A DNA stretch of 59,449 nt, taken from positions 1 through 59,449 of the forward strand of contig JAFUYM010000020.1 in assembly GCA_017470525.1 (NCBI GenBank), given 5' to 3'. Position 1 is the stretch's first letter. Each line of letters starts with the position of its first letter. A program made the position numbers and the translations under genes. The DNA is from Bacteroidaceae bacterium. GTDB lineage: Bacteria > Bacteroidota > Bacteroidia > Bacteroidales > Bacteroidaceae. Positions 19,450 through 34,044 of the stretch are shown piece after piece. Under the pieces are notes generated by a model that was not told where the DNA came from, did not search any database, and saw only the letters and a list, made by a program, of their open reading frames with translations.

Positions 19450-19569
19450 CCAGAAACGTTAAAGAAGGTTAAACATGCGAAAAAAGTGTGTTTCTTATGG
19501 TGTACGCATTCCCTTTCTTTCACCGATGCAGAGAAATGGGAGAAGAATAGGACATTCGTAGGGTGTGGA

Positions 19570-19602
19570 AAGAGGACGCATCCTTGCCCGATGCGTCCTC
19601 TT
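19570..19602. terminator. 13-bp perfect hairpin downstream of the GH95 gene
   Basis: AAGAGGACGCATC at 19570-19582 pairs with GATGCGTCCTCTT at 19590-19602 around a 7-base loop. It lies about 90 bases past the stop of the leftward GH95 gene. The T run is short, so termination is likely but not certain. Confidence 0.55.
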
Positions 19603-19625
19603 TGTGTATGTTCGTAACCTCAAAA

Positions 19626-19690
19626 CCGACCACGTCGTGGTCGGCAAACCGATTACGTCGTGGTCGGTCAATCGACCACGACGTGGTCGA
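19626..19690. repeat. 23-bp-period palindromic array 1
   Basis: Three 19-base palindromes start at 19626, 19649 and 19672, exactly 23 bases apart with four-base spacers. Their centres are CACGTCGTG, TACGTCGTG and CACGACGTG. The last unit ends three bases before the stop codon of the GH95 gene. Confidence 0.8.
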
Positions 19691-19693
19691 TTT

Positions 19694-22129
19694 TCACCTC
19701 ACCACGTTCTTCCCTCTCTCCAACTTCACCACCTTCGTTGCCCCGTTCACCTTGAGGGCAACCTTGCAAGCCTGCTGAGCCGTGAGGGTGAGGGACGTAA
19801 CTTTGCCGTTCTCCCAAACCATATCCACGGTGATGCCACCACGGGCACGGATGCCTGAGACGGAGCCATCCTTCCAATTGTCGGGCAGGGCTGGCAACAG
19901 TTCGATTTCAACGGGAGTCTTGACATTGCCCACGAGATAGTTACTCTGCATGAGCATCTCAATCACACCTGCACAACCACCAAAATTGCCGTCAATCTGG
20001 AAAGGCGAATGGGCATCAAGCAGGTTGGGATAGGTGCCGCCGCCACGACGAGCATCGGCTCCTTTGTACTTGTCAGGACTAATGTAGTTGAGGAGTTTGC
20101 GATAGATGTGGTAGGCATTCTTCGCATCGTGCAGACGGGCGTAGAGGTTCACACGCCACCCTGTGCTCCAACCGGTCGTTTGGTCGCCTTTCAGTTCGAG
20201 GGTCTTGGAGGCGGCACGTTCGATTTCGGCTCTCTTATGCACCCCATCCTCCACATTGTGGCCAGGATAGATGCCGAACAGGTGGCTCTGGTGGCGATGG
20301 TGCGGGTCTTCATCCTCCCAGTCGTAGAACCATTCCTGCAGGTTGCCCTTCTTGCCAATCTTGTAGGGCTGAAGTTTGGCGAGGGTGGCTTCTGCCTCCG
20401 CAATGAAATCCTTGTCAACGCCCAGTTCCCAAGCCGCATTTCTGGCATCGGTCAGGCACTCGCGAATCATGGCGATGTCGGCAAAACCGCCATAGCAAGA
20501 ACGTCCGTGATAGCCTTCTGGCGTGACGTAGATGTTCTCTGGCGAGGTGGAAGGAGCCGTGATGAGATACTCCTTGCCGTCCACACCCATGCTGGTGGTA
20601 GTGACCATCCAGTTCATGCAGAACTCGGCAGCCCCTTTCAGCACGGGGTAATACTCGCGGAGGAAGTCCTTGTCGAGCGAGAAAGTGTAGTGTTCCCAGA
20701 TGTGGGTGCTCACCCACGCACCACCCATGTTCCAGTTTGCCCACGAAGGGTCACCCGTGTGGAGCCCCACAGGACAGGTCATCGCCCAGATGTCGGTGTT
20801 GTGAGCCAGACACCAGCCCTTGTTCACACCATAGTATGCCTTTGCCGTCTGCTCACCAGAGCCTTGCAATTCCTTCAGGAACGTCAACAAAGACAGGTGC
20901 ATCTCGGGCATTGCTGCTGTCTCGGCAGCCCAATAGTTCTCCTCCACATTGATGTTGCTCGTATAGTTGCACGACCACGGCGGCAACATCTTCTCGTTCC
21001 ACAAACCCTGCAAATTCGCGGGCACATTGGGAGTGCGAGAACAAGAGATGAGCAAGTAACGTCCATACTGGAAATAGAGGGCTTCGAGGTCGGGATTGAA
21101 AATGCTTTCATTCACATATTCCTTCAACACCTCATCGGTAGGTCGAACATCTTCCCTCCCCTTCCCCAATGAGAGTTTCACGCGGTTGTAGATGCTCTGG
21201 TAATCCTTGATGTGACGAGTCGTCAATATTGGATAAGGCTTCGCACTGAGGCGATTCATCCTATTGTTCGCTATCTGCTGATAAGGCTTTCCCTCCTTCA
21301 CGGGGTCTTTGTCGAAGCCGTTGAAGGAAGTGGCATTGACGATGTAGAGCGTCACTTCCTTGCTGCCATTGACGAGCACACTACCCTGCTCTGCCCTGAT
21401 GTGGTCGGCATCGACCTTCACCAACGTGCGGAAGTGGATGCCACGCCCGGGGTCGTAGGCAAACTTTTCCTTGGCATCGTAGTAACTCGGCAGGGAGCCA
21501 TAGCCGGCATAACCATCGTTGATGATGATGCCCTGCTCCACACGGATGTCGGCTCGCAGTTGACAAGAGAGGGAGATGCGGGCATGGATGCCTTTAGGAT
21601 TGTCGGTCGTGATACGCACCACCATGCCCGAGTCGGGATGAGTGGCAAAATACTCTGTCGCATACTGATACTTTCCTCGGTGGTACACCGTGTGAGCGGT
21701 GGCATTGCCGATGTCAAGCCATCGGCGATAATTGCTCACCTCACCCTCTGTGTCGAGATACTGAATCTGCAACTCGCCCAGCGGCTGATAGTTCTGCGAG
21801 AAGTGTCCCTGCACATCCCTTTGCAAACGGTCAGCCTCCTTGTAGTCACCCTTCCGCAACGCCTCCCTGATGGCAGGAATCGTCTTGTGCGCCTCTGGCG
21901 AATATATGTTCATGTTGCACGGTTCACCTGTCCACAGCGTGATGTCGTTGAGCGAAATCTTGTCCGTGTCCGTACCGCCATACACGATGCCGCCCATCGT
22001 GCCGTTGCCAATCACCAATGCCTCCTCAAAGAAGTCGGCAGGACGGTCGTAGTGTAAGGTCTGAGCCCACGACATCGTTACCGATGCCAAACACACCGCC
22101 CCAATCATAAAGAGAGTCTTTTTCATCAT
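19694..22129 (-). CDS. GH95 family glycoside hydrolase (alpha-L-fucosidase type)
   Basis: The ATG at 22129 gives 811 residues with a signal peptide (LFMIGAVCLASVTMSWAQ). The N-terminal part has the GH95 pattern: PADFFEEALVIGNGTMGG, SLNDITLWTGEP, and the central NLQGLWNEKMLPPWSCNYT, with the catalytic region around NINVEENYWAAE. The (alpha/alpha)6 part follows, including DPHHRHQSHLFGIYPG near the C-terminus. GH95 enzymes cleave alpha-1,2-linked L-fucose or, in some members, L-galactose. It lies 98 bases downstream of pdxT with its own -7 box (TACCTTTG, 22161-22168). Confidence 0.9.
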   Translation of the reverse strand: MMKKTLFMIGAVCLASVTMSWAQTLHYDRPADFFEEALVIGNGTMGGIVYGGTDTDKISLNDITLWTGEPCNMNIYSPEAHKTIPAIREALRKGDYKEADRLQRDVQGHFSQNYQPLGELQIQYLDTEGEVSNYRRWLDIGNATAHTVYHRGKYQYATEYFATHPDSGMVVRITTDNPKGIHARISLSCQLRADIRVEQGIIINDGYAGYGSLPSYYDAKEKFAYDPGRGIHFRTLVKVDADHIRAEQGSVLVNGSKEVTLYIVNATSFNGFDKDPVKEGKPYQQIANNRMNRLSAKPYPILTTRHIKDYQSIYNRVKLSLGKGREDVRPTDEVLKEYVNESIFNPDLEALYFQYGRYLLISCSRTPNVPANLQGLWNEKMLPPWSCNYTSNINVEENYWAAETAAMPEMHLSLLTFLKELQGSGEQTAKAYYGVNKGWCLAHNTDIWAMTCPVGLHTGDPSWANWNMGGAWVSTHIWEHYTFSLDKDFLREYYPVLKGAAEFCMNWMVTTTSMGVDGKEYLITAPSTSPENIYVTPEGYHGRSCYGGFADIAMIRECLTDARNAAWELGVDKDFIAEAEATLAKLQPYKIGKKGNLQEWFYDWEDEDPHHRHQSHLFGIYPGHNVEDGVHKRAEIERAASKTLELKGDQTTGWSTGWRVNLYARLHDAKNAYHIYRKLLNYISPDKYKGADARRGGGTYPNLLDAHSPFQIDGNFGGCAGVIEMLMQSNYLVGNVKTPVEIELLPALPDNWKDGSVSGIRARGGITVDMVWENGKVTSLTLTAQQACKVALKVNGATKVVKLERGKNVVR

Positions 22130-22160
22130 GCTGTTTTTATTAGTTAGTCTTTCGCGCCCC

Positions 22161-22168
22161 AAAGGTAA
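22161..22168 (-). promoter_or_regulatory. -7 box of the GH95 gene
   Basis: TACCTTTG on the minus strand matches TAnnTTTG, 32 bases upstream of the GH95 start. Confidence 0.5.
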
Positions 22169-22227
22169 GACAAAAAAACGACATAGACAACCTTTAGCGT
22201 GATGAAGTCAATCACATGCTGCACTTT

Positions 22228-22788
22228 TCAACTTCTTGCCTCTGCAATCAGTTGCAAGAAGTGCTGATGCAGACGAAGGTCGGGGTCGAGTTCGGGATGG
22301 AAAGCGGTGGCGAGTTGGTTGCCTTGCTGGGCAGCGACGATGTGTCCGTCCACTTCGGCAAGGGCACGGCAATCGGAGGAGAGGATTTCGTCGATGTAGG
22401 GTGCACGGATGAAGGTCATGGGAAGGCGGTCGCCAATGCCGGTGACAGCACCTTCGGTGTGGAAACTGCCGAGTTGACGACCGTAGGCATTGCGGCGCAC
22501 ACGGATATGCATGGTGCCGAGATAGCCGTCGGACAGGAGTATCATCCCTGCACAGGTGCCAAAGACGGGAAGCCCCTGAAGGATGGCTTCGCGGATGGGT
22601 TCGTAGAGCCCGAGCCCCCGCAGGAGGCGCATCTGCACGGTGCTTTCGCCGCCGGGCAGGATGAGTCCGTCCTTGGGCTGCTGCCAATCAGAGAGTTGGC
22701 GCACTTCAAAAGTGTCGGCACCAAGTTGCTGCAACCGCTGCTCGTGCTCGATGAATGCCCCTTGCAGGGCAAGAACTGCAATCTTCAT
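22228..22788 (-). CDS. pdxT: Pyridoxal 5'-phosphate synthase glutaminase subunit
   Basis: PdxT releases ammonia from glutamine for PdxS. The ATG at 22788 gives 186 residues. The class I amidotransferase triad is visible: Cys79 in VFGTCAGMIL, His164 and Glu166 in TAFHPEL. The start has VLALQGAFIEHEQRL and the glycine-rich ILPGGEST region, all typical. It follows pdxS by 34 bases on the same strand, so the two form a PdxST pair for de novo vitamin B6 synthesis. Confidence 0.95.
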   Translation of the reverse strand: MKIAVLALQGAFIEHEQRLQQLGADTFEVRQLSDWQQPKDGLILPGGESTVQMRLLRGLGLYEPIREAILQGLPVFGTCAGMILLSDGYLGTMHIRVRRNAYGRQLGSFHTEGAVTGIGDRLPMTFIRAPYIDEILSSDCRALAEVDGHIVAAQQGNQLATAFHPELDPDLRLHQHFLQLIAEARS

Positions 22789-22822
22789 GTTCTGTTCTTT
22801 TTGTCTCACAGAATTACAGAAA

Positions 22823-23698
22823 TCACTTCCCTCTTTCAGCCATCAGGAGTTCGATTTCCTGCTCGTTGATGCCCACCATCGCCTCGCCAAGGTCTTCGGA
22901 GAGTGCTGCCAAGAGTTTGGCATCCTGATAGTTGGTGACTGCCTGCACGATGGCTGCCGCACGTTTGCGGGGATTGCCGCTCTTGAAGATGCCGCTACCC
23001 ACGAAGACACCCTCGGCTCCCAGTTGCATCATCAGGGCGGCATCGGCTGGGGTGGCAACTCCACCTGCCGCGAAGTTGACCACGGGCAGTTTACCGTTCT
23101 CGTGCACAAAACGCACGAGTTCGTAGGGGGCTTGCAACTGCTTGGCTGCTTCGAAAAGTTCATCTTCGCTCATCGAAACAAGCCGCCGTATCTCGCTTTG
23201 CATCAGGCGCATGTGGCTCACCGCCTGCACCACGTCGCCCGTGCCAGGTTCGCCTTTGGTGCGAATCATCGTGGCTCCTTCAGCAATGCGACGCAAGGCT
23301 TCGCCCAGGTTCTTGGCACCACAGACGAAGGGCACGTCGAACTTCGTCTTGTCGATGTGGTAGATGTTGTCGGCAGGAGAGAGGACTTCGCTTTCGTCAA
23401 TGTAGTCAATCTCAATGGCTTGCAGGATTTGTGCCTCTGCAATGTGTCCGATGCGGCACTTTGCCATGACGGGAATGCTGACTGCCTCTTGGATGCCACG
23501 AATCATCTTCGGGTCGCTCATGCGGCTCACACCACCAGCAGCGCGGATGTCGGCTGGAATGCGTTCAAGTGCCATTACTGCACATGCGCCTGCCTCTTCG
23601 GCGATGCGAGCCTGTTCAGGAGTGGTGACGTCCATGATCACTCCGCCTTTCAGCATCTGAGCCAATTGGCGGTTTAAGTTTTGTCTTTCGTTGTTCAT
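22823..23698 (-). CDS. pdxS: Pyridoxal 5'-phosphate synthase lyase subunit
   Basis: PdxS builds PLP from ribose 5-phosphate, glyceraldehyde 3-phosphate and ammonia from PdxT. The protein is 291 residues long, the usual size. It has the start motif [12 protein letters not shown], then Lys80 in VMAKCRIGH and Lys148 in [11 protein letters not shown], the two active-site lysines of the family, and [20 protein letters not shown] late in the barrel. It lies between the ThiD-like/AraC regulator and pdxT on the same strand. Confidence 0.96.
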
Positions 23699-23771
23699 TG
23701 TCGTGTTTTATTTTATATGGAAATAATAGGAATATCAAGAATTATAAGAAAAGAGGGAAGCAAAGAGGAAA

Positions 23772-24659
23772 TCAAGGGAAGTCGCGGAACTGGGAGGGCG
23801 AGATGCCTTTCTGCTTCTTGAAGAAGCGTGAAAGATGGGCTTGCGAGGAGAAGCCCAAGCGAAGGGCGATTTCCTTGAGGGGATAGTTGGTCGTGGTGAG
23901 CAGCGAGGCAATCTCGGCGGTAATGCGCTCGTCGATGATGGTCTTCGGGGAACGCCCTGCGATACGGCGCGTGACCTGACCGAGGTATGGCGAACTGACG
24001 TTGAGTTGTTCGGCATAGAATGCCACATCGGCATAGCGATGGAAGAACCGCTCGACGGCATCGAGGAACTGATTGTACAACTCTCCGCTCCGCCCCATCG
24101 ACTCAACGTAACCTGCAGGCAAGTTGGCAAGCAACTCATGCGCATGGCGGATGGCTTCGTCGGGTTGCTCACCACGGTTGAGCAGTACTGCCACTGCGGA
24201 GGAGAGTTGATTCGCTGTGCCGTGCGGCGCCTCGTGGCTCGCCTCCAGCACCACGGTGCAGAGGGGCAGGATGAGCCGCTCTATCGCCTCATACACCTGA
24301 GGAGAAAGCAACCGTTCGCCATGTGCCGATTCCTGCACAGGGGCATAGATGACATGGCGAGGATGGTAACGTCTCAGCACATCAGCCACCGCCTCGACCA
24401 CATTGATGCGACGGAGCAGCCCGACCTTCACCACCTGCGGCTGCAGGTCGTTAATGATTGCCTCCACCTGCTGCCGCACAGCCGAAGCGGGCAAGTCGTA
24501 GAACTCCTGAATGCCGAGCGTGTTCTGCACCGTGATGGACGTGATGGCAGATGCAGCCACACCGCCCAACTGGTGGATGAGACGGATGTCCGCCTGCACT
24601 CCCGAACCGCCCGTGCCGTCGCTGCCGGTGATGGTCAATATCGCTCTCGTTGGATTCAT
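23772..24659 (-). CDS. ThiD-like domain fused to AraC-type regulator of the B6 genes
   Basis: The ATG at 24659 gives 295 residues. Residues 1-190 resemble hydroxymethylpyrimidine/pyridoxal kinases (ThiD/PdxK type): GSDGTGGSGVQADI and PQVVKVGLL. The catalytic GTGCT motif is replaced by GTANQ at 147-151, so kinase activity is probably lost and the domain may sense a B6 or thiamine compound. Residues about 200-295 form an AraC DNA-binding region with EIALRLGFSSQAHLSRFFKK. It sits 73 bases upstream of pdxS on the same strand and probably controls pdxST. Confidence 0.85.
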   Translation of the reverse strand: MNPTRAILTITGSDGTGGSGVQADIRLIHQLGGVAASAITSITVQNTLGIQEFYDLPASAVRQQVEAIINDLQPQVVKVGLLRRINVVEAVADVLRRYHPRHVIYAPVQESAHGERLLSPQVYEAIERLILPLCTVVLEASHEAPHGTANQLSSAVAVLLNRGEQPDEAIRHAHELLANLPAGYVESMGRSGELYNQFLDAVERFFHRYADVAFYAEQLNVSSPYLGQVTRRIAGRSPKTIIDERITAEIASLLTTTNYPLKEIALRLGFSSQAHLSRFFKKQKGISPSQFRDFP

Positions 24660-24838
24660 TTGTCGTGCCTCGTTATAAATTCTGTGCAAAGGAACACAAA
24701 ATTGCAGAACTGACAAAAAAAGACTCTATTTATGATAAAAGAAAATACAATTTGGGCAAAAAACGATACCGTTTTTTACGGAATCGCCTCATCCTCTGCA
24801 TTGACAAGGTTGAAACTTACTGCACACACCAACAAGCC

Positions 24839-24976
24839 CACGATGTACACACAAGAAAACTCATGGCGCACACACAAGAAAGTCCACGACGTGTGGGGTA
24901 ACAAGTCCACGACGTGCAGTCTTTCATATTCACGACGTGCAGTCATTGCAGTCCACGACGTGCAGTCTCTTCTGCG
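24839..24976. repeat. 23-bp-period palindromic array 2
   Basis: The core CACGACGTG starts at 24885, 24908, 24931 and 24954, exactly 23 bases apart. Two degenerate units in phase lie upstream: CACGATGTA at 24839 and CATGGCGCA at 24862. The last three cores are each followed by CAGTC. The core is the same as the third unit of array 1 (CACGACGTG), so the arrays are related. Confidence 0.75.
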
Positions 24977-25120
24977 TGTTTAGTTTTAAACACAATATGC
25001 ATAATGTTGTTTATTATAAACAGAAAAAGGCATTTCTGTTTACAGCATTCCATTGTTACCTTTTCACACAAAAACAAAAAAGATATTGCCCAAAGTGACA
25101 TGATTCTAAAATAAAATGCT

Positions 25121-25128
25121 TAACTTTG
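25121..25128 (+). promoter_or_regulatory. -7 box of the HEPN/MNT pair
   Basis: TAACTTTG lies 28 bases before the HEPN start at 25156. Confidence 0.6.
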
Positions 25129-25155
25129 CAGCCAAAGAATCATAAGGCATAAAAT

Positions 25156-25593
25156 ATGACAAGAGAAGAAAAAGTACAATACTGGCTCGACATCGCGGCT
25201 GAAGACCTTGACTTGGGCGAGTTTCTTTTCCATAGTGGACGTTGGCTTTACTCAGCCTTCATGTGCCATCAGGTCATAGAAAAAATGTTCAAGGCTTATT
25301 GGACGGCTACCCGCGATGACGTTCCACCCTACATCCACGAGCATAAACGATTGGCTGAACTATGCGGACTATACGGACAGATGAGCGACGAGCAGCGTGA
25401 CTTCCTGCAAGAGATTCGCCCCATGAACATCGAAGCACGATACCCCGACTACAAGCGTAGCATCGCCAACACACTCAATGAAGAAAAGACCCACCTGATT
25501 GTTGAACAAACAAAACAAATGCAGCAATGGATTCTCCAAAAGTGCTCACCCGAGACGAAGCCATCGACCTCGTCCGCCAATACAAACAAGTGA
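25156..25593 (+). CDS. HEPN domain protein of a HEPN/MNT pair
   Basis: This 145-residue protein has the four-helix HEPN pattern: WLDIAAEDLDLGEFLF, then YSAFMCHQVIEKMFKAYW, then the basic IRPMNIEARYPDYKRSI segment of the HEPN family (PF05168). The canonical R-x4-6-H motif of RNase-type HEPN toxins is not clear here, so it may act through its partner rather than as an RNase. It overlaps the MNT gene by 67 bases. Such pairs behave as toxin-antitoxin or regulatory modules. Confidence 0.8.
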   Translation: MTREEKVQYWLDIAAEDLDLGEFLFHSGRWLYSAFMCHQVIEKMFKAYWTATRDDVPPYIHEHKRLAELCGLYGQMSDEQRDFLQEIRPMNIEARYPDYKRSIANTLNEEKTHLIVEQTKQMQQWILQKCSPETKPSTSSANTNK

Positions 25594-25847
25594 TTTCGCC
25601 CCGTTTCAATGGACAGGCAAAAGTCATGATGTTCGGTTCCTACTCTAAGGGTTACCCAAACCCGTGGAGTGATATTGATGTGGCTGTCATCGTTCCCACT
25701 GTAGCCGAAGATAAATGGCTTGAGACCTCTATCGCCCTTGGCAAGGATAGTGACAAAGTGAGTCTGCTCATCGAGCCCGTCCTCTTGGCAGAAGATCATT
25801 GGTCCCCTCTCTACGACGACGTGATGCAAACAGGAGTGGCTGTATAA
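25527..25847 (+). CDS. MNT-type minimal nucleotidyltransferase
   Basis: This 106-residue protein has the nucleotidyltransferase signature: MMFGSYSKGYPNPWSDIDVAVIV, with GS at the start and DID holding the metal-binding Asp residues. In HEPN/MNT modules this protein AMPylates or otherwise modifies the HEPN partner. The start overlaps the end of the HEPN gene by 67 bases in another frame, an unusually long overlap; a later start is possible but the N-terminal helix TRDEAIDLVRQYK fits the family. Confidence 0.82.
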   Translation: MDSPKVLTRDEAIDLVRQYKQVISPRFNGQAKVMMFGSYSKGYPNPWSDIDVAVIVPTVAEDKWLETSIALGKDSDKVSLLIEPVLLAEDHWSPLYDDVMQTGVAV

Positions 25848-25858
25848 TATATATAAAA

Positions 25859-25886
25859 TCAAACCAGCCTATTCAAACCAGCCTAT
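25859..25886. repeat. 14-bp tandem duplication at the acyltransferase stop
   Basis: TCAAACCAGCCTAT is present twice in a row (25859-25872 and 25873-25886). Read on the minus strand, the junction creates the TAG stop of the acyltransferase gene. Confidence 0.75.
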
Positions 25887-26546
25887 CCCCTGTTTAATTA
25901 CTTCAACAGACTTTCCATGACCTCCAATAACACAATTCTCTTCCATAATACTTCTTGTGATAGTGGAATTTGCAGAAACCACATCGTTATCAGGAATTGT
26001 CACTCCTTTCAGAATAGTGTTACGGCATCCAATCCAAACATGATTGCCTACCTTTATGGGTTGGGGAGAATTTGTTGTCACTCCACTTTCATTGGTAATA
26101 TGATGAAAGTCTGTGTCCATCATTAAAATATCCCACGACAGTAAACAACCATCCCCAAATGCAATTTCTTTCTGACATATGATTTCAGTGTTTCCTGTTA
26201 TCTTAAAATCCCTCCCCAATGTCAATCTGGCATCTTTCCCAATACTAATCTTGGTTCCACGACCAATGTAGACTTTACCTTTAACAACTAAGGTTCCCGC
26301 CACTGCCCACATTGTTCTTGAAAACAAAAGGTCTTGTGTTCCTAATCCATGTGGACCAAATCTTACCATTCCCGTCCTAATAGGTGCATCAATAACTATT
26401 TGCCCTTTCATCTTATAAAGTTCCGATTGCCAATAGATAAATACTGGCACACGAATCGCTGTTTTAAACGGGAAATAGTGAAAATTGAAATATAAAGTCT
26501 TCCATAAATCCACTTTCCAAAATAATTTCATTGCGGACTTGATTGT
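25869..26546 (-). CDS. Hexapeptide (LbH) acyltransferase
   Basis: A start at 26546 gives 225 residues; a longer start at 26573 and a shorter one at 26531 are possible. The protein has hexapeptide turns of the left-handed beta-helix type (GKVYIGRGTKISIG, then NHVWIGCRNTILKGVTIP), His residues in DTDFHHITN for CoA-dependent acyl transfer, and a C-terminal EENCVIGG. Members acetylate sugars or amino acids. It reads leftward, convergent with HEPN/MNT. A 14-bp duplication at the 3' end sets the stop codon. It has no linked glycan genes, so the substrate is unclear. Confidence 0.8.
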   Translation of the reverse strand, partial: TIKSAMKLFWKVDLWKTLYFNFHYFPFKTAIRVPVFIYWQSELYKMKGQIVIDAPIRTGMVRFGPHGLGTQDLLFSRTMWAVAGTLVVKGKVYIGRGTKISIGKDARLTLGRDFKITGNTEIICQKEIAFGDGCLLSWDILMMDTDFHHITNESGVTTNSPQPIKVGNHVWIGCRNTILKGVTIPDNDVVSANSTITRSIMEENCVIGGHGKSVEVIKQGIGWFE

Positions 26547-26735
26547 CATAAATAAAACACAATTGTCCGCCAAACACCCTGAATCGGACAGGCTAAATAA
26601 TTACTCGAATGGCCACAAAAGAAAAGCGGGGTATCTGGCTTCTGCTTGTTCGCAATTCGAGGCTTTCCACGACCTATGACCAGAAAACAAGCAGATTGAT
26701 ACCCACGCCGTTGGTATATATAATGCGCCCGAAAA

Positions 26736-26767
26736 GCGTGCGTGAGGCTACACGAGCCTCTGCACGC
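26736..26767. other. Strong GC-rich hairpin in the structured block
   Basis: GCGTGC pairs with GCACGC and, inside it, GAGGCT with AGCCTC, around a five-base loop. Outside it, CCGTTGG and CCAACGG copies sit at both sides (26708 and 26767), suggesting a longer compound stem. Confidence 0.55.
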
Positions 26768-26859
26768 CAACGGGATGGTTATATACCTACCCGCAGCATC
26801 CACCTCTGCAATGTCTTTGACTGGTCAGTTGTTTTGTGGAAATTTCGAACTGCCAAAAA

Positions 26860-26947
26860 CAAAGCGTCAGCGACGCGTTCCAAATGTAGTGCTCCCTCCC
26901 TGTAGCCGCTCCGACATCTTACAAAGTCGGCTCGGCGTGAGTAAGCA
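26860..26947 (-). ncRNA. Candidate small RNA of about 90 bases
   Basis: On the minus strand a TACCTTTG box lies at 26951-26958. The predicted transcript begins with a hairpin at 26905-26936 (GCCG and CCGAC stems separated by a symmetrical AG/AG loop) and ends with GCGTC-GCT-GACGC (26864-26876) followed by TTTGTTTTT, a terminator shape. No coding frame is convincing across it. Confidence 0.45.
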
Positions 26948-27187
26948 GTGCAAAGGTACTCATTTTCTTCCTTTCTCTACATACAAAAAACTAAAAAAGT
27001 CAACTTTTCATTGATTTATTGCCCAAAACACTTTCATATACCTCATTTCTGAAGAACATGATGTCATCAAACCTGAAAAGCAATAGACAGAACTTTGAAA
27101 TCGAACGAATAGAAGCCTTAACGACTCCTGCAAGAAATCTCAAAAAGGTGCGAGAACCTAAAAGAGTAAATGCCACGGAACACGGGG

Positions 27188-29599
27188 TCAGTGCAGCAGA
27201 CACTTGTGCTTACCTGCTGTGAGACGTACGGTTTTCTCGCCGCCGTAGAGTGTGGCAGTCGTGCCTTTCGGCAAATTCACTTGGTAGAGGATTTTGCCAT
27301 TTTTTTGTTGGTGCCATTCCACGTCGATTCGTCCGTAGGGGGTCATCGTGCCACCTTTTGCCCATGTGAGTCCACCGCCGAACTCGGGCTTCAGGATGAA
27401 GTGACGGAAGCCCGGTTGTGTCTCGTCGGGACGGATGCCGAGGATGCCACTATAGAACCACTCCACCACCACACCATAAGCATAGTGATTGAACGAATTC
27501 ATGTTCCACGGATGCTTGTGGAAGCCCGTCTCTTCCGTGTAAGAGTCCCAACGCTCCCACACGGTGGTGGCTCCTTGGTCGATGCTGTAGAGCCACGAGG
27601 GGTTCTGGCGTTGCAGGAGCAAGCGATAGGCGAGGTCGGTCATGCCGCATTCGGTCAGCGTGGGCATCAGGATGCCTGTGCCGACAAAGCCCGTGGAGAG
27701 TCGGTAGTCATTATCGATGATGTTCTTTCGCAAGGCGGCAATGGCGGCAGGTCGTTGCTGAGGAGTGAGCAGGTCGAAGTGCAGTGCCAAGAGATAAGCC
27801 GTCTGTGTGTCCTTGCCTGTGTTGATTTCGCCATCGGTGATGTAGCGACGCTGGAACTCTGCCACGATGTCCCTGCGCAACGCTGCATATTGGGCTGCAT
27901 CTTGCTCTTTGCCCAACACACTTGCCACTTTCTGCATCAACTGAGCCACATGCGCATAATAAGCATACGACACGTAGCGTTTCTCCACCTCACGATAGGC
28001 AAGCCAATCGCCGAAGTCGGTCTCTGCCCCCACATGCGCCCACCCCTCCTCGTGCTGGTCGGCACAATGGCGCATCCATGCCTGCATGCTCTCGTAGTTC
28101 TCGTGCAGAATCTGGTCGTCGCCTGTCATCACATACACATTCCACGGCACAATCACACCTGCATCGCCCCATGCCGCACCGCCATAGCCCCACATGGTGC
28201 AGTAGGGAGCGGTGCAGGGATAGGCACCATCTTCACGCTGGCTGTTGCGCATGTCGCGCATCCACTTGCGGTAGAAGTCCTTCACGTCGGCATTGTAGAG
28301 TGCCGTGACCGAAAAAATCTGCGTATCGCCCGTCCAGCCCAAGCGTTCGTCGCGCTGAGGGCAGTCGGTGGGGATGGAAAGAAAGTTGCCACGTTGTCCC
28401 CACCACACGTTGCTGTAGAGTTGGTTCACATCGGGATTGGAACAGGCAAAGTGTCCCCATTCCTTCAAGTCGCTGCCCACGACTTGCCCTGTCACCTGAT
28501 TAAGAATGACATCCTCCGTCGCAGTCAGTTCCACATAACGGAAGCCAAAGAATGTGCTTGTGGGGTGGTAATGCTCGCCTTTCTCTTCGCCTTTCATCGT
28601 GTAGGTCAGCGTCGCCTTAGCCGAACGTAGGTTGTAGGTCCACACGCTGCCTGCTGGACCTTGGTCGAGTCTTGCCTCGTCGCCGTTGTAGTTCAACATC
28701 TCGCCAAAGCGCCATGTCAGCACCGTGCCAGCACTACCCTTTGCCACGAAATCAATCCAACCGACCATGTTCTGCCCGAAATCTATCACGACCGTCTGCC
28801 CCTTCTTCAGCAACAGCGGCTTCCGTAAATCGGGTTGCTGATGGACGATGTTGATGCGTCCATAGCGTGTATCGGTCGGCACGGTTCCTTCATAAACGGT
28901 CACGCTCTGGGGCACACGCCACAGTTTCGGGTCGCGAATCGTCACGAGTGGTCCTTCAAAGGGAATCAACATGCCCTTCTTATCGGTGTTTTGTACCGCA
29001 TATTGCCAAGCCGAATCATCAAAGCCGACTCCTCTCCATGCCACCGAACAACGGGCATCATACGTCTCGCCATCATAGATGTCCCCCATCCGCAAAGGTC
29101 CTTCGTCGCTCGCCTTCCACGTCGTGTCAGTGCACACCGTCTGCACCTCACCGTCTGCATAGGTAACCACGAGTTTTGCCGCAAGCGCATTCTTCACCGC
29201 CTTTCCATACACGCCACGTGCAATGCCACCCGACCACCAGCCGTTGCTCACCTCGGCAGCCACCACATGCGTCTCTCCTTTCTTCATCAATCGTGTCACG
29301 TCCATCTCCACGTATGGAATCTCCTTCCGATAGTCAGTCCATCCTGGTTTTAACTGATGCTCACCCATCCGTTCCCCATCCACAAACACATCATACACAC
29401 CCAATGCCGAACTATACAACACCGCTTTCACCACCCTCTTTGGGCTCAGCACCACCTCCTTACGGAACACAGGCACTCCACCCGTCTTGGCTTCCCCTAA
29501 GGATACCCATATTGCACCTTCCATTGCCGAATTATCAGCCATAGCCGCACACACGGACATCACGCATAGCAGCATGAACATTCCTAATCGCTTCAACAT
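27188..29599 (-). CDS. GH78 family alpha-L-rhamnosidase
   Basis: A start at 29599 gives 803 residues with a signal peptide (MLKRLGMFMLLCVMSVCAAMA). It shows the GH78 arrangement: an N-terminal beta-sandwich with GWTDYRKEIPY and NGWWSGGI, then the (alpha/alpha)6 domain with IPTDCPQRDERLGWTGD, containing the candidate acid Glu, and later TVWERWDSY and SFNHYAYG. It removes terminal alpha-L-rhamnose from plant or bacterial glycans. It lies downstream of an EamA transporter (30 bases) and a GH106 enzyme on the same strand. Confidence 0.92.
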   Translation of the reverse strand: MLKRLGMFMLLCVMSVCAAMADNSAMEGAIWVSLGEAKTGGVPVFRKEVVLSPKRVVKAVLYSSALGVYDVFVDGERMGEHQLKPGWTDYRKEIPYVEMDVTRLMKKGETHVVAAEVSNGWWSGGIARGVYGKAVKNALAAKLVVTYADGEVQTVCTDTTWKASDEGPLRMGDIYDGETYDARCSVAWRGVGFDDSAWQYAVQNTDKKGMLIPFEGPLVTIRDPKLWRVPQSVTVYEGTVPTDTRYGRINIVHQQPDLRKPLLLKKGQTVVIDFGQNMVGWIDFVAKGSAGTVLTWRFGEMLNYNGDEARLDQGPAGSVWTYNLRSAKATLTYTMKGEEKGEHYHPTSTFFGFRYVELTATEDVILNQVTGQVVGSDLKEWGHFACSNPDVNQLYSNVWWGQRGNFLSIPTDCPQRDERLGWTGDTQIFSVTALYNADVKDFYRKWMRDMRNSQREDGAYPCTAPYCTMWGYGGAAWGDAGVIVPWNVYVMTGDDQILHENYESMQAWMRHCADQHEEGWAHVGAETDFGDWLAYREVEKRYVSYAYYAHVAQLMQKVASVLGKEQDAAQYAALRRDIVAEFQRRYITDGEINTGKDTQTAYLLALHFDLLTPQQRPAAIAALRKNIIDNDYRLSTGFVGTGILMPTLTECGMTDLAYRLLLQRQNPSWLYSIDQGATTVWERWDSYTEETGFHKHPWNMNSFNHYAYGVVVEWFYSGILGIRPDETQPGFRHFILKPEFGGGLTWAKGGTMTPYGRIDVEWHQQKNGKILYQVNLPKGTTATLYGGEKTVRLTAGKHKCLLH

Positions 29600-29629
29600 A
29601 TTGTTTATCATATACATTCATAGAATTAA

Positions 29630-30556
29630 TCAGACAAAGAACAAAGTAACACCAGCCACACTGATGATGGCACCGAGAATCTCGAGCGGTGTGACCTTCT
29701 GATGGAAGAAATACCACGAAGGAAGGAGGATGAAGATGGGGGTCATTGCCATAATGGTTTGGGCGATGCCTGTGGTGGTGTAGAGGGTTGCCATGAGAGA
29801 GAGGCTGACACCAAGGAAGGGACCAAGCAACGTGGCAAGGAGGACAAAGAGCATGGCACGACTGTCACGTGTGGCACGTGCAATGGTGCGGGTCTTGCCC
29901 CTGAAAATCATGACAAAAGAGAAGCAGACAAGCCCTGTCACCGCACGCATAAAGGTGCTGGCAAAGGGCATGATGTCTAAGGCTTCGGGAGATTGGATGA
30001 GCGTCTCATAATGGGTCATGCCCACCTTGCTGAGCACAAGACCGACACCTTGACCAATGCCTGCACCAATGCCGAAAAGCACACCTTTGAGGGGAAGTTT
30101 GAGATTGAGTTTGTGGTGTTCACCACCTTTCGACAGCACACTCAATCCGATGCCGAACATGGTGATGAGCATGCCCATGATGGCAAGTCCCGACATCTTT
30201 TCGCCCAACAGAACGAAACCAAAAATGGCGGCTGCGGCAGGAGCCAACGTCATGAAAAGTTGACCAAAGCGACTGCCAATGAGCAGATAGGAATTGAACA
30301 GGCAGTAATCACCCAACACATAACCCACAAAGCCCGACAGGGATAACCACAGCCACGTTTCAGCATCAGCATCGACTGGCAGAGGATGTCCACACACCAC
30401 CCACATCAGGATGGCAAGAAAGACCAACGAAAGCAGCATCCGCAGGACATTCAACCCCAGCGGTGTAATGCGCCGGCTTGCCCCCTCGGCAGCAAGTGCA
30501 GTGACAGTCCAAGAGATAGCCACAACCAAGGAAATCAGTTCGCCTTTGTAGAGCAT
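29630..30556 (-). CDS. EamA/DMT family transporter
   Basis: This 308-residue protein has ten hydrophobic helices in two repeats, the DMT (EamA) fold, starting with KGELISLVVAISWTVTALAAEG and ending with LEILGAIISVAGVTLFFV. These proteins move small metabolites or sugars across the inner membrane. It is placed between two rhamnosidases on the same strand (24 bases from the GH106 gene, 30 bases from the GH78 gene). A role in rhamnose or rhamnosyl-product uptake is suggested only by context. Confidence 0.85.
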   Translation of the reverse strand: MLYKGELISLVVAISWTVTALAAEGASRRITPLGLNVLRMLLSLVFLAILMWVVCGHPLPVDADAETWLWLSLSGFVGYVLGDYCLFNSYLLIGSRFGQLFMTLAPAAAAIFGFVLLGEKMSGLAIMGMLITMFGIGLSVLSKGGEHHKLNLKLPLKGVLFGIGAGIGQGVGLVLSKVGMTHYETLIQSPEALDIMPFASTFMRAVTGLVCFSFVMIFRGKTRTIARATRDSRAMLFVLLATLLGPFLGVSLSLMATLYTTTGIAQTIMAMTPIFILLPSWYFFHQKVTPLEILGAIISVAGVTLFFV

Positions 30557-30580
30557 GGTGTTTGTGCTTTTCCTGAAAAG

Positions 30581-33178
30581 TTACTCAATGGTACAAGGAA
30601 TCAACTTCACTTCACTGTTCAAGCCTGATGGGACAGTTGTCCAATGGCTGTAGAGGTCACGCTTGTAGTTGAGGTCAACCACATTGATTTCCTTGAACTT
30701 GCGCCACTGCACACCATCGCGGTCCATCTGTGCGATGCGGTTGGCTGGCAGGTTGGCGACTTCTACTTCAAGGGTATTGGCACCCTCATGCAGATAAGGA
30801 GTCACATCCACACGGAACGGAACGGCAAACAACGTTCCGACTTCTTTTCCATTCACCAACACATGGGCGGTCTCTCGCACATCGCCAAGGTCGAGGAGAT
30901 AAGCGGTATTGGGCTGCATCTTGGGCAGAGTGAAAGAGGTCTTATAGACACCCGTTGCCATCGTGGTGTTGAGCAGCGAGTCGCCCAAAGTAGTCCATGC
31001 CTGAGGTGTACCTTCCATCGTGTATTTCTTCGTTATCTGAACAGGAGCGGACTCCTTGAAAGAAAGTGTCCAATTGGTCAGGTTTTTCGCACGATTGGCT
31101 TGCTCCTTATAATAAACATGGGACTTGAACGTGTCGGATGTCCCCTCCGTAAAGGTACGAAGGATGATGCTCTCTCCGCTCTTCAGTTGCACTCTGACAC
31201 GTCCCTGTGCATCCATCTTTGCGAGGTCAATCTTACCGTCCATCGGATTGTAGAAAACTGCCTTTTTCGCTTTGACGCCCAGTGTTATGAAGGTGTCAAC
31301 GTCCTTGCCCTGCAAGTTGGAGATGAAATAATGATAGCCCTCCGAATTAGAACGGCGAATGCAACTCAGTCCTTGCTGCAAACGCATGGGTTCCCTGCGG
31401 GCAGAACTGAACTGAAGCCCATCGCTGTAGGTAGGTGACGTGACGATGCTGCCTTTGCCCCAAACAATCCGCATCGCCTGCTCGGGATGGAAGGTGACGG
31501 TGTGCTGCAACTGTCCCATCAATGTAGCAAACTCCTGTTGTTCAGCAGTTTTTCCATAACCTGGGACAGAGGTCGGGAAGGAACGGACGAACATCACTTG
31601 CCCACCCTGTTCAGCAATCTGCATGAGCCGTTTCAGCGTAGAAGTCGGCATGAAACGCACATCGGGAATAATGATGGTGGCATAACGCTTGGTAATGTCA
31701 TCCCGCATCAGATAGCGGTCGGAGATGTAATCGACATCATAACCACTCTTGATGATGGTCTGAACGGTCTCGATGAACTTCGGAGCGCGCTTTTCCATCG
31801 AATGAATATCGAAAAGGGCCACCGTTCCTGACTGGTCGTAAAGCATGTCATAATAAGGCAGATAGACCAACACGTCATTGTCGGGTTCTCCCCACTGGAG
31901 GAAGGACTGGCAACGCTGGATGTATTGGGAAAATGCCGGCATCGCAGCCCACCAATTGTTGTTAGGGCTCATATCGACACTGGCATAGAAACGCCAACCA
32001 GGCCACTCGGCACCTTTGGGGGAGTAGCAGGAACCGTGGAAAAAGATGTGGTTGACACCCGACAGAAACATGAGGTCGAGGTCGGGCTTGCACTGAGAAA
32101 GCGAGGTGCGGAAATGCTCAGTCAGCCATGTGAACGTCTCGCTGGAAGTGTATTTCTTGCCTGAAATATGGGCTGCAGAAGATGCATATTTCAGCATGGA
32201 AATATCTGAATCGTTCTTCTTCGTGAAACCTTTATCGGTGCGCAAACCGATGATGCCAAAGTCACTCAAGCCAAAGCCTTCACATTCAGGAATATCGACT
32301 GCTGCATAGACATCGAGCAAGTTGGCTGGGCTGCCATGCGCCTGATTACGTGTGAGACTGCCATGACGATGTGCCCAATCAGTCCATTGGGTGGTGAAGT
32401 TTTCCAACAGGAGTTCACCTAAAGTTTCGCGGTAATCGCTGACGATGCGTTTGTCGGCATCGGTACGAAGAGAGTCTTTCTTGTTCAATATATAGGTGAA
32501 TGGCATGAGGTCATAGCCGCGACGCTTCTGAAATTCATCAAAAAGCATTGGCGTCCAGTCTGCTCCATACACTTCGTAGGAATCATTGAACATCACACGT
32601 GGGAAAGGCACATTCTGATGGGCAAAAGCGGTGTCGAAGCGTTCAAAATAGTGCGCCACGGCATCATGGTCGAAATGATCTATCACAAAGCCTTCGCCAC
32701 CAGGAGCAGCACGTTTCACCTTCTGCCCCGTGCGACCCAAAGTAGCATCTTGGTCAGCATCAAAAACAATTTTGTGGGCAGCATCTTCTTCTGTCACCAA
32801 CGGACCGCCAAACGGCCAACCCGTCCCCGTTGCCATGTTGGTCTCAATGCCCAACTCCGTCCCACGAATCTCCACATACTTCAACATTCGCATCCATCGG
32901 GGGGAGAGGTAACTGATGTCGTTGGCATCATTGCCCTGCACACCATAAATAGGCGTGATTTCCACACCACCGATGCCAGCCTTGGCGAGTTCAGAAAGAT
33001 TATAGTCAAGTCCAACTGAATCGACGGCACTGCCCAACCACCACCAACGGGTGTAGGGCTTTGCCTCCTGAGGGATGGGAAGCCACTGCTGGGCACGGAT
33101 GCCCATATTCAACACGATGAAAAAGCAAAGTGACAAAAAAGCCTTTGTCAGCACGGGATAGTTAGTTAATTTCTTCAT
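30581..33178 (-). CDS. GH106-like alpha-L-rhamnosidase
   Basis: This 865-residue protein has a signal peptide or N-terminal anchor (about residues 10-29) and the GH106 pattern: TRWWWLGSAVD and GIGGVEITPIYG at the start of the catalytic barrel, NMATGTGWPFGGP, and later SSETFTWLTEHF with a likely catalytic Glu. The C-terminal part is beta-rich, with LLDLGDVRETAHVLVNGKEV. GH106 enzymes remove alpha-L-rhamnose, for example in pectin. It is the first gene of the leftward trio with the EamA transporter and GH78 enzyme; a TATTTTCG box lies upstream at about 33208. Confidence 0.85.
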   Translation of the reverse strand: MKKLTNYPVLTKAFLSLCFFIVLNMGIRAQQWLPIPQEAKPYTRWWWLGSAVDSVGLDYNLSELAKAGIGGVEITPIYGVQGNDANDISYLSPRWMRMLKYVEIRGTELGIETNMATGTGWPFGGPLVTEEDAAHKIVFDADQDATLGRTGQKVKRAAPGGEGFVIDHFDHDAVAHYFERFDTAFAHQNVPFPRVMFNDSYEVYGADWTPMLFDEFQKRRGYDLMPFTYILNKKDSLRTDADKRIVSDYRETLGELLLENFTTQWTDWAHRHGSLTRNQAHGSPANLLDVYAAVDIPECEGFGLSDFGIIGLRTDKGFTKKNDSDISMLKYASSAAHISGKKYTSSETFTWLTEHFRTSLSQCKPDLDLMFLSGVNHIFFHGSCYSPKGAEWPGWRFYASVDMSPNNNWWAAMPAFSQYIQRCQSFLQWGEPDNDVLVYLPYYDMLYDQSGTVALFDIHSMEKRAPKFIETVQTIIKSGYDVDYISDRYLMRDDITKRYATIIIPDVRFMPTSTLKRLMQIAEQGGQVMFVRSFPTSVPGYGKTAEQQEFATLMGQLQHTVTFHPEQAMRIVWGKGSIVTSPTYSDGLQFSSARREPMRLQQGLSCIRRSNSEGYHYFISNLQGKDVDTFITLGVKAKKAVFYNPMDGKIDLAKMDAQGRVRVQLKSGESIILRTFTEGTSDTFKSHVYYKEQANRAKNLTNWTLSFKESAPVQITKKYTMEGTPQAWTTLGDSLLNTTMATGVYKTSFTLPKMQPNTAYLLDLGDVRETAHVLVNGKEVGTLFAVPFRVDVTPYLHEGANTLEVEVANLPANRIAQMDRDGVQWRKFKEINVVDLNYKRDLYSHWTTVPSGLNSEVKLIPCTIE

Positions 33179-33280
33179 CTTGACGCTCTATGTTTCTATT
33201 TACGATGCGAAAATACGACAATTTTGTGGGTTGAACAAATTTTTATGGCATCCTTTGGGTTGGCATATCCTTTTTTTACC

Positions 33281-33288
33281 TAACTTTG
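33281..33288 (+). promoter_or_regulatory. -7 box of the upxY-type gene
   Basis: TAACTTTG lies 39 bases before the ATG at 33327. Confidence 0.6.
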
Positions 33289-33326
33289 CAACGTTTTTAC
33301 ATCACAATCGGTTGTTAAACACCCGC

Positions 33327-33893
33327 ATGGAAGACTCAACTACAACAAAAATAGTTTCTAAAAAACAGAAAGACGAGCCACAATGGTTCGCCTTAAAAGT
33401 CAGCCGAAAGGAGGCACAAGCAACCTCTGTGTTGGAGAAGGCTGGTGTACGTGTCTATTGTCCGATGGCTGCGACCGACACCACTATTCAAGGAAAAAAG
33501 GCCATCGTGGAACGCCCCCTCATCCCCAACACCATTTTTGCCTTCGCCCCTTTCCGCGAAGTCAATTCGCTGAAGAATGCGCACCCTTTCATCACTTACT
33601 GTTACAAGAAAGAAGACGGCAAATACAAAATTCTGCAAGTGCCCACACGCGAGATGGAACGCTTCATCGACTCATCCACCAAGATGAAAAATGACATCAC
33701 CTATTTCCAACCCGAAGAGGTGGAACTGAAACAGGGAGACAAGGTGCGCATCGTCGGTGGGCTGTTCGACGGCTATGAAGGCACTCTGCTCAAAGCAAAA
33801 GGCCGTGCCAAACGTATGTTTCTCATCAACTTTGAGATGTTGGGCGCCATCGGTACACATATTGAACCACAATACATCAGAGTCATCAAATAA
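33327..33893 (+). CDS. UpxY/RfaH-type NusG-like transcription antiterminator
   Basis: The ATG at 33327 gives 188 residues; the longer frame begins inside the promoter. The N-terminal NGN domain is seen in PQWFALKVSRKEAQATSVLE and the C-terminal KOW motif in GDKVRIVGGLFDGYEGTLLK. UpxY proteins bind RNA polymerase to allow full reading of long capsule operons, and the gene is normally first in the operon. Here it is rightward, while the glycan locus is leftward and ends nearby, so it does not head that operon. It may act in trans or belong to another locus. Confidence 0.82.
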   Translation: MEDSTTTKIVSKKQKDEPQWFALKVSRKEAQATSVLEKAGVRVYCPMAATDTTIQGKKAIVERPLIPNTIFAFAPFREVNSLKNAHPFITYCYKKEDGKYKILQVPTREMERFIDSSTKMKNDITYFQPEEVELKQGDKVRIVGGLFDGYEGTLLKAKGRAKRMFLINFEMLGAIGTHIEPQYIRVIK

Positions 33894-33952
33894 CACCCAC
33901 ACAAAGGGGAAGGAATCCCTCACACAAAGAGGGAAAGAACGCCCCTAAAAAC

Positions 33953-34044
33953 GGTGCACTCAGCACCTCTGTTTCGGACTGCTCCACTCCGATGAAGCGG
34001 ACTGCTCCAGTCTGACGTACCGCACTGCTCCAGTCCGATTTGAA
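33953..34044. repeat. 23-bp-period palindromic array 3
   Basis: Units start at 33953 (GGTGC-ACTCA-GCACC), 33976 (GGACT-GCTCC-ACTCC), 33999 (GGACT-GCTCC-AGTCT) and 34022 (GCACT-GCTCC-AGTCC), each exactly 23 bases apart. Each unit is a 15-base quasi-palindrome followed by an 8-base spacer. The cores differ from arrays 1 and 2 but the period is the same. Confidence 0.8.

What the first reader, a model, noticed from the sequence alone, without database searches (positions are those of the whole stretch)
19626..34044. Three intergenic arrays share an exact 23-bp period
Arrays at 19626-19690, 24839-24976 and 33953-34044 have 3, 6 (two degenerate) and 4 units, each unit exactly 23 bases after the last. 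Arrays 1 and 2 share the core CACG(A/T)CGTG. Array 3 has an unrelated palindrome with the same spacing. Each unit is a hairpin-forming quasi-palindrome plus a short spacer. All three lie in gaps between transcription units. An exact, conserved period with changing sequence suggests that helical phase or unit length is under selection, or that a common mechanism makes the arrays. From memory, BrickBuilt MITEs of Porphyromonas gingivalis contain 23-bp tandem repeats, which may be related; this must be verified.
Basis: partly seen in the sequence, partly recalled or inferred. Interest (0 to 1): 0.82.

Follow-up and report, generated by a model that had tools for sequence, protein, structure and literature searches.

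The report
Triple-hairpin repeats with fixed 23-bp pitch
Two of the three arrays belong to a large family of short mobile-looking DNA elements in a gut-type bacterium, each usually made of three hairpins exactly 23 bases apart, whose hairpin sequence differs between species while the spacing and overall design stay the same.

Summary
In the window, 23 is the only period (10-60) with strong self-match. In 41 stretches (24.7% of this MAG) 41 arrays have period 23; no other period has more than 9. Arrays 1 and 3 share one architecture: CCTC - 4 nt - three [8-nt arm, 3-nt loop, 8-nt arm] with 4-nt spacers, so 19+4=23. CCTC lies exactly 8 nt outside the stems at 18 of 50 ends, at most 2 at any other offset. 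Families differ in stem and loop, not geometry. One family sits in a MITE whose copies form a 95/118/141-bp ladder. In one coding gene the triple lies at identical positions in six species, yet its closest match is an array elsewhere in its own genome in 4 of 4 testable species. This suggests one old insertion plus in-place homogenisation. Palindromic arrays favour convergent gaps (10 of 22). Array 2 belongs to another class without this hairpin. The mobilising enzyme is unknown; a RAYT link was not supported. BrickBuilt shares the 23-nt period, not its exact ends. Best reading: a fixed-geometry, variable-stem variant of MITE/REP-like repeats.

The parts
19618..19621 (.). CCTC end box of array 1, starting exactly 8 nt before the first stem; the right end has no such box
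   Evidence: sequence
19626..19690 (.). Array 1: three 19-nt hairpins (8-3-8) with 4-nt spacers; F3 family, stem type CCGACCACGTCGTGGTCGG, the main type of G020 and the only such array among the 20 F3 triples of this genome
   Evidence: 93.8% identity to L278 of G020
19569..19603 (.). separate terminator-like hairpin beyond array 1 (AAAGAGGACGCATC..GATGCGTCCTCTTT)
   Evidence: fold
19694..22162 (-). GH95 glycoside hydrolase gene; its stop codon is 3 nt from array 1
24839..24976 (.). Array 2: six 23-mers (two degenerate) around CACGACGTG; not an 8-3-8 hairpin array; divergent gap. An exact pattern search found one other such array in the genome, at G000:C1:8693
33974..34038 (.). Array 3: three 19-nt hairpins, F2 family (TCGGACTGCTCCAGTCCGA), 23-bp pitch
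   Evidence: 28 sites of the exact F2 core in the genome
34059..34091 (.). terminator-like hairpin of the convergent gap; a similar hairpin is seen by eye in most relatives' gaps, which lack array 3
33180..33893 (+). UpxY/NusG-type antiterminator gene upstream of array 3

Best explanation
Arrays 1 and 3 are copies of a superfamily of short, non-coding, MITE/REP-like elements. Each copy is a row of usually three hairpins (8-bp stem, 3-nt loop) separated by 4 nt, in most families bounded by a CCTC/GAGG box 8 nt outside the stems, and in part of one family set inside longer terminal inverted repeats (GAGGGTGTGTCAAA). The 23-bp period is the pitch of this shared design (19+4). It persists because copies spread as whole cassettes and gain or lose whole units. 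Shown: geometry, end box, dispersal, unit ladder, presence/absence between species, preference for convergent gaps, species-specific stem types. Inferred: (1) they are mobilised in trans by an unidentified enzyme that reads the ends and the hairpin layout rather than the stem letters; (2) stems stay palindromic through template-switch copying within hairpins, which would also flip the loops; (3) ectopic gene conversion between copies homogenises the stem type within a genome, and occasional horizontal transfer brings in foreign types. At 3' ends the hairpins are probably tolerated, and may stabilise mRNA ends as REPs are thought to do. I found no sign that an RNA strand is selected.
For: Geometry: 17 equally spaced hairpin triples at 23 against at most 3 at any other distance. 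CCTC at -8 at 18 of 50 ends of 25 own arrays, and at 71 of 102 ends of 51 F3 arrays. Dispersal: F2 core at 28 sites in G000, 1 in G020, 0 in the other 39 of 41 genomes; F1 tandem pairs 28, 16, 16, 5, 3, 1, 1, 1 in 8 of 41 genomes, none in the 16 genomes outside the genus; backward controls 0. Ladder: 16 MITE copies of 95 (2), 118 (1), 132 (1) and 140-142 (12) bp. Whole-unit change between sister species: 3 units in G011, 2 in G010; 3 in G018, 2 in G054 at the in-gene site. In-gene site: units at 96/73/50 nt in 6 of 6 species with an intact F3 triple; 102 nt fewer in G046. Homogenisation: mean identity 0.83 within and 0.71 between genomes, 0 of 2000 permutations as large; nearest array in own genome for 4 of 4 testable in-gene copies. 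Paired changes: 10 pairs changed on both sides in the 6 orthologues, shuffles 0 of 500. Context: 10 of 22 in convergent gaps against 16% of the space, p=0.001; 15 of the 20 with a neighbouring 3' end lie within 70 nt of it.
Against: No transposase was tied to the ends. Direct repeats at the MITE ends were at most 2 bp (4 of 16), so no target duplication is seen. Family F1 (7 of the 25 arrays) has the pitch, but only 1 of its 14 ends has the CCTC box. Tandem 23-mers without the hairpin, and species G004 with 5 intergenic arrays of period 22, show that a period of 22-23 is not confined to this design. Gene conversion was not observed directly. For G000 the in-gene array is on average slightly less like its own genome's arrays (0.825) than like the G010 and G011 orthologues (0.85); only its nearest neighbours (up to 0.908) are its own genome's. 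G010 and G011 do not test homogenisation. In the 51-array alignment two of five covariation measures did not exceed shuffles. The context test uses simple ORF calls and a sample partly taken from contigs known to hold arrays.
Confidence: 0.67

Rival explanations
1. The same sites are hit again and again: the in-gene array was inserted separately in each species by an element with strong target choice, so no in-place rewriting occurs.
For: F1-type arrays occupy nearly the same loop of the same gene in G018, G054 and G014, so the loop does accept more than one insertion. The elements are clearly dispersed.
Against: In 6 of 6 species with an intact F3 triple the units lie at exactly the same nucleotides with no indel on either side, and the flanks outside the box align.
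Confidence: 0.2
2. The arrays are functional hairpin terminators or 3' mRNA stabilisers kept by selection; the pitch reflects RNA structure or a protein that binds three hairpins.
For: Convergent gaps are over-represented (10 of 22), and 15 of the 20 palindromic arrays with a neighbouring gene 3' end lie within 70 nt of it. Stems keep pairing across species.
Against: Arrays 1 and 3 have separate terminator-like hairpins beside them. In 10 arrays with one transcription direction, G-U pairs on the sense strand (9) are not more frequent than on the antisense strand (15). No Rfam match in the window. Most orthologous gaps of array 3 lack any such array.
Confidence: 0.15
3. The 23-bp pitch is kept by selection on helical phase (about two turns), as in iteron-like protein-binding arrays.
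For: The period is close to two helical turns, and arrays that fail the hairpin score, 6 of 13 of them in divergent gaps, also use 23.
Against: 22 and 24 are used by related species and families. No binding protein is known, and the sequences differ so much between families that one binding protein is unlikely.
Confidence: 0.1
4. REP/REPIN elements mobilised by the genome's RAYT-like Y1 transposase.
For: Short dispersed extragenic palindromes; one RAYT-like gene in G000 (PF01797 over its cut-off; NF047646 below its cut-off). 22 of 25 genomes of the genus searched (G000 included) have a match to that protein.
Against: Arrays of period 21-25 near RAYT-like genes: 6 of 30 loci in 103 kb, about the density of the own-genome sample. 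None seen by eye in 341 and 221 bases beside the G000 gene. No GTAG in the 50 flanks of 14 nt listed. G024 (99% complete) has no match to the RAYT protein but has a 23-bp array (whether that one is of the hairpin kind was not checked).
Confidence: 0.1

Closest known systems
BrickBuilt MITE of Porphyromonas gingivalis (PMC4596501)
   Same: Tandem 23-nt repeats in an intergenic MITE (P. gingivalis is also of the Bacteroidales, recalled); unit number varies between copies and strains; predicted long stem-loops; flanked by predicted terminators and/or polyadenylation sites in 10 of 19 cases (paper).
   Different: One direct-repeat family (1 to 22.8 units) between a leader (up to 285 nt) and a tail (up to 318 nt); ends GAGACCTTTGCA (IS5-like), not found exactly near any of 41 arrays here. 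Here: usually three hairpin units, many stem families, ends CAnnCCTC or GAGGGTGTGTCAAA. Repeat sequences were not compared, because no BrickBuilt repeat sequence was at hand.
REP / REPIN / BIME elements (GTAG- and CGTC-tagged REPs, PMC3733652, passages read)
   Same: Short dispersed extragenic palindromes; some inside genes.
   Different: Fixed 23-bp pitch and usually three units, CCTC box instead of a GTAG tag, no enrichment near RAYT genes.
Rickettsia palindromic elements (RPEs; MITE review PMC10969869, passages read)
   Same: Palindromic elements inserted in frame in coding genes, several families in a genome.
   Different: RPEs are about 150 bp (review passage); that they lack internal 23-bp hairpin triples is recalled. 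Sequences were not compared.
MITEs with internal minisatellites
   Same: Part of one family here has inverted ends and internal tandem units (95/118/141-bp ladder).
   Different: The internal array also occurs without those outer ends, and stems differ between genomes at one orthologous site.

Membership tests
MITE | short, non-coding, terminal inverted repeats, multiple copies | tested here: met
   16 copies with GAGGGTGTGTCAAA inverted ends (up to 3 mismatches), 13 in G000 and 3 in G020, among the loci held; applies to part of family F3 only
MITE | target-site duplication | tested here: not met
   direct repeats of at most 2 bp, at 4 of 16 copies; flanks instead extend the inverted repeat in several
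MITE | parent transposon with the same ends | tested here: inconclusive
   8 of 12 matches to the end motif in G013 lie within about 140 bases of a contig end, suggesting a multi-copy element, but the three fetched ends did not show a transposase
BrickBuilt | 23-nt tandem repeats in intergenic DNA | tested here: met
   definition
BrickBuilt | ends GAGACCTTTGCA / TGCAAAGGTCTC | tested here: not met
   within 400 nt of 41 arrays: 0 exact, 1 with one mismatch, 9 with up to two mismatches (72 such sites in the sample, so roughly 3 expected by density); variant GAGACCTTCGCA 0, 1 and 3
BrickBuilt | leader and tail homologous to BrickBuilt | not tested
   no BrickBuilt sequence was available
REP/REPIN | dispersed extragenic palindromes | tested here: met
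REP/REPIN | GTAG (or CGTC) tag at the hairpin foot | tested here: not met
   none of the 50 flanks (14 nt, read towards the hairpin) listed holds GTAG, by eye; CGTC occurs within F3 stems, not as a tag shared by families
REP/REPIN | flanks a RAYT gene in the same genome | tested here: not met
RPE | in-frame insertion in protein genes | tested here: met
   one certain gene
RPE | sequence relation to Rickettsia RPE families | not tested
   no RPE sequence was compared
CRISPR | identical repeats separated by unique spacers of similar length to the repeat | tested here: not met
   units are 19-nt hairpins with 4-nt spacers

The most novel reading that the evidence does not exclude
The arrays are rewritten in place: a cellular or element-encoded process copies the current hairpin sequence of a genome into its arrays of fixed geometry, leaving flanks untouched. 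Geometry (three 8-3-8 hairpins, 23-bp pitch, CCTC box) is the inherited trait, and stem letters are a species-wide replaceable 'type'. The same process may also set the period of the 22-23-bp arrays that lack the hairpin.
Probability: 0.2. Interest if true: 0.9.

Novelty: new variant of a known kind. Interest (0 to 1): 0.7.

Why it matters
It describes a repeat superfamily defined by geometry rather than sequence, which homology searches by letters miss. It gives a natural test of how DNA palindromes stay palindromic and become species-specific in bacteria: one orthologous in-gene array in six species shows stem and loop replacement with no change in length. It may also bear on the 22-23-bp minisatellites reported in P. 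gingivalis.

Tried and rejected
RAYT as mobiliser: arrays are not enriched near RAYT-like genes, 6 of 30 loci. RNA-level selection: wobble pairs do not favour the sense strand. Known RNA family: 0 Rfam matches in the window at gathering thresholds. Viral carriage: an F1 pattern and a slightly stricter F3 pattern had 0 matches in viral contigs. Plasmid and phage records: no match for array 1 in plasmids or array 3 in phages; the other combinations were not run. Wider distribution: the F3 triple pattern was in 0 of 392 other genomes of the order (206 other genera), 5 of them from other genera of the same family. Within the genus it was in 6 of 6 tested, of which G007 also had 3 places on each strand with the backward control. 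Orthologous intergenic arrays: of 129 arrays, both flanks were found close together in another species' stretch in 16 comparisons. 14 were scored without array and 2 with (the same G010/G011 array seen from both sides). One of the 14, G010 against the 23-bp array of G011, in fact holds a 2-unit version below the threshold. Array 3's own locus and its G017 orthologue were left out of that count; array 3's locus is covered. Literature searches: no paper held all terms for '23-bp / tandem repeats / Bacteroidales / intergenic', 'palindromic / tandem / Prevotella / intergenic repeats', or 'concerted evolution / palindromic / miniature inverted-repeat / bacterial genomes'. The papers were seen as listings, except PMC3733652 and the ones named as read.

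Limits of the samples: of the 20 stretches, 18 came from contigs already known to hold arrays. The 20 (19 contig starts plus one stretch around the RAYT gene) were chosen without regard to arrays and hold 18 of the 41 arrays in 359 kb. Gene calls are simple longest-ORF calls, not an annotation. The end-box count used 25 arrays (50 ends) that passed a hairpin score; the other arrays were dropped. In that set the two-unit L018 array was read with its left end as a first unit. The 15 arrays called 'other' are those that failed the palindrome score and include some imperfect hairpin families. The MITE ladder counts only copies in loci that I held.
Full report
What was checked. The three arrays were read and tested. 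In the window only period 23 reaches 34 of 46 matches. The window is contig C16 of a 3.24-Mb, 83-contig MAG. Its 19 relatives found by an OmpA-like gene are MAGs labelled Bacteroidaceae, Prevotellaceae or Bacteroidales, many from rumen or gut, so the organism is an uncultured gut-type member of that group (inference).

Genome-wide. In 41 stretches (799,948 bases, 24.7% of the genome) arrays with at least 30 of 46 matches number 41 at period 23, 9 at 46, and at most 7 at any other period from 10 to 69; shuffled controls gave 0 at periods 20-25. The batch chosen without regard to arrays holds 18 in 359 kb, about one per 20 kb. Independent of repeat identity, hairpins with 8-nt arms and a 3-nt loop form equally spaced triples 17 times at distance 23 and at most 3 times at any other. 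In 40 stretches of same-genus species such triples peak at 23 and 24 (6 each), apart from 10 at distance 12. In 20 stretches from 10 genomes of other families there is none at 22-25 (largest 4, at 31).

Anatomy. Most palindromic arrays have three units. Families in this genome: F1 TCGTACCC-CTC-GGGTACGA; F2 TCGGACTG-CTC-CAGTCCGA (array 3); F3 YCGAnnnn-nnn-nnnnTCGR (array 1); F4 GGGGAGAG-AGT-CTTACCCT; F10, one array, with a 5-nt spacer and period 24. Loops occur in both orientations within a family. CCTC stands exactly 8 nt outside the first stem, or its complement outside the last, at 18 of 50 ends, in F2, F3, F4 and F10, but at only 1 of 14 F1 ends. So the period of 23 in arrays 1 and 3 is one shared design, not two coincidences.

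Mobility. F2: 28 sites in this genome, 1 in G020, 0 in the other 39 of 41. F1 tandem pairs: 8 of 41 genomes, all of the genus. F3 triples: 20, 39, 16, 11, 5 and 5 places in six genomes of the genus (G000, G013, G020, G011, G007, G010) and 0 of 392 other genomes of the order. The gap that holds array 3 could be read across in 17 named relatives: by eye most keep a terminator-like hairpin, none has this array, and 4 hold a different 22-bp array. Thirteen F3 copies in G000 and three in G020 lie in a MITE with GAGGGTGTGTCAAA ends. Their lengths are 95, 95, 118, 132 and 140-142 bp (12 copies), so all but the 132-bp copy fit steps of 23 to within a base. Sister species G010 and G011 (91.8% identical over the compared stretch) have 2 and 3 units at one site.

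Concerted change. An ATP-grasp-like gene of G000 (my reading of the motif, no family search made) carries a triple in frame. In G000, G020, G007, G013, G010 and G011 the units start 96, 73 and 50 nt before the same codon, with no indel from the MRW codons on; G045 has the same spacing with a decayed array; G046 lacks 102 nt there. F1-type arrays sit in the same loop in G018, G054 and G014. Stems and loops differ between the F3 species. Across 51 F3 arrays of five genomes (20, 15, 11, 4, 1) identity is 0.83 within and 0.71 between genomes (0 of 2000 label permutations as large), and 45 of 51 nearest neighbours are in the same genome. For the four genomes with a set to compare, the in-gene copy is nearest to an array of its own genome (0.91-0.985), not to an orthologue (at most 0.85). 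The case is strong for G020, G007 and G013; for G000 its mean identity to its own genome (0.825) is below that to the G010 and G011 orthologues (0.85). Loop types per genome: G000 54 of 60 GAC, G013 42 of 45 CCC, G007 12 of 12 CCC, G020 30 of 33 GAC with mostly CCAC stems. Stem changes are paired: in the six orthologues 10 pairs changed on both sides, with shuffles reaching this 0 of 500. In the 51-array set cells paired, cells with double changes and covariation score exceed all shuffles, but the numbers of pairs and of pair types do not. A single hairpin over the whole array is also partly supported (83.8% paired), as expected because units are alike. Array 1 itself is of the G020 type (93.8% to L278), the only such array among 20 in this genome, which suggests transfer between lineages.

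Place. Of 26 palindromic arrays in the own sample, 22 lie in classifiable gaps: 10 convergent (expected 16%, p=0.001), 2 divergent (expected 28%, p=0.056). Of the 20 in gaps with a gene 3' end, 15 lie within 70 nt of it. Of the 15 arrays that failed the palindrome score, 13 lie in classifiable gaps, 6 of them divergent. Array 2 belongs to these: tandem 23-mers without the hairpin design, with one other family member found in the genome by an exact pattern.

Mechanism. Best supported is copying of a fixed-geometry cassette, unit gain and loss by whole units, and homogenisation of stems. That template switching in inverted repeats evens out arms and inverts the part between them is stated at the start of the abstract of PMC8604942 (seen in the listing); I apply it here by inference. 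Gene conversion between copies is inference. The mobilising enzyme is unknown; the single RAYT-like gene is not supported as the partner. Helical phase is not needed to explain constancy, and 22- and 24-bp relatives argue against a strict phase rule. That arrays without the hairpin in this genome, and intergenic arrays of G004 (22 bp, three of the five look related to each other), also keep one period is not explained by the hairpin design and stays open.

Known relatives. BrickBuilt (PMC4596501: outline with abstract, sections 5, 7 (first part) and 8, and search passages read) shares the 23-nt period and MITE setting; its end motif was not found exactly near any of 41 arrays. REP families (PMC3733652, passages) share dispersal and palindromes, not the tag or RAYT link. 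RPEs (PMC10969869, passages) share in-frame insertion. I file the finding as a new variant of MITE/REP-like repeats.

Noticed in passing
G000 sample: L020:17066-17294, L095:231-481, L094:15802-15940, L108:3609-3715, L022:16764-16899, L110:3996-4087: Tandem 23-mers without the hairpin, several with 4 or more units, exactly the same period as the hairpin triples; cause unknown.
   Followed up: partly
G004 (L085, L128, L131, L132): 5 intergenic arrays of period 22 (three look related, two differ), one of 21, and no period-23 array listed in about 120 kb.
   Followed up: no
L306, L307, L280 flanks: Three MITE copies sit inside longer inverted repeats (9, 8 and 5 bp beyond the ends), as if inserted in terminator hairpins.
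   Followed up: partly
G013:C13:223383, C20:14723, C40:77147 (L309-L311): The MITE end motif occurs in a terminator-like hairpin GAGGGTGTGTCAAAATAGGCACATCCTCTTTTTT near contig ends, hinting at a multi-copy element that breaks the assembly.
   Followed up: partly
L226, L227 (G017, G055): The same in-gene loop that holds hairpin arrays elsewhere is filled with TCAACTC-type simple repeats in these two species.
   Followed up: no
window 23772-24716 (-) and 25156-25593 (+): Array 2 lies between a fusion of phosphomethylpyrimidine kinase with an AraC-type HTH domain and a HEPN-domain gene, in divergent orientation.
   Followed up: no
L021:17825-17927 (G000:C24): An F3 array at the 3' end of a thioredoxin-like gene lengthens its reading frame; in G013, G011 and G010 the match ends at or before the array.
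   Followed up: partly
L103:13623-13796, L029:1164-1310: AT-rich arrays built on TTCAAGCCAAATTG, period 23; the L029 arrays fold largely into one long hairpin.
   Followed up: no
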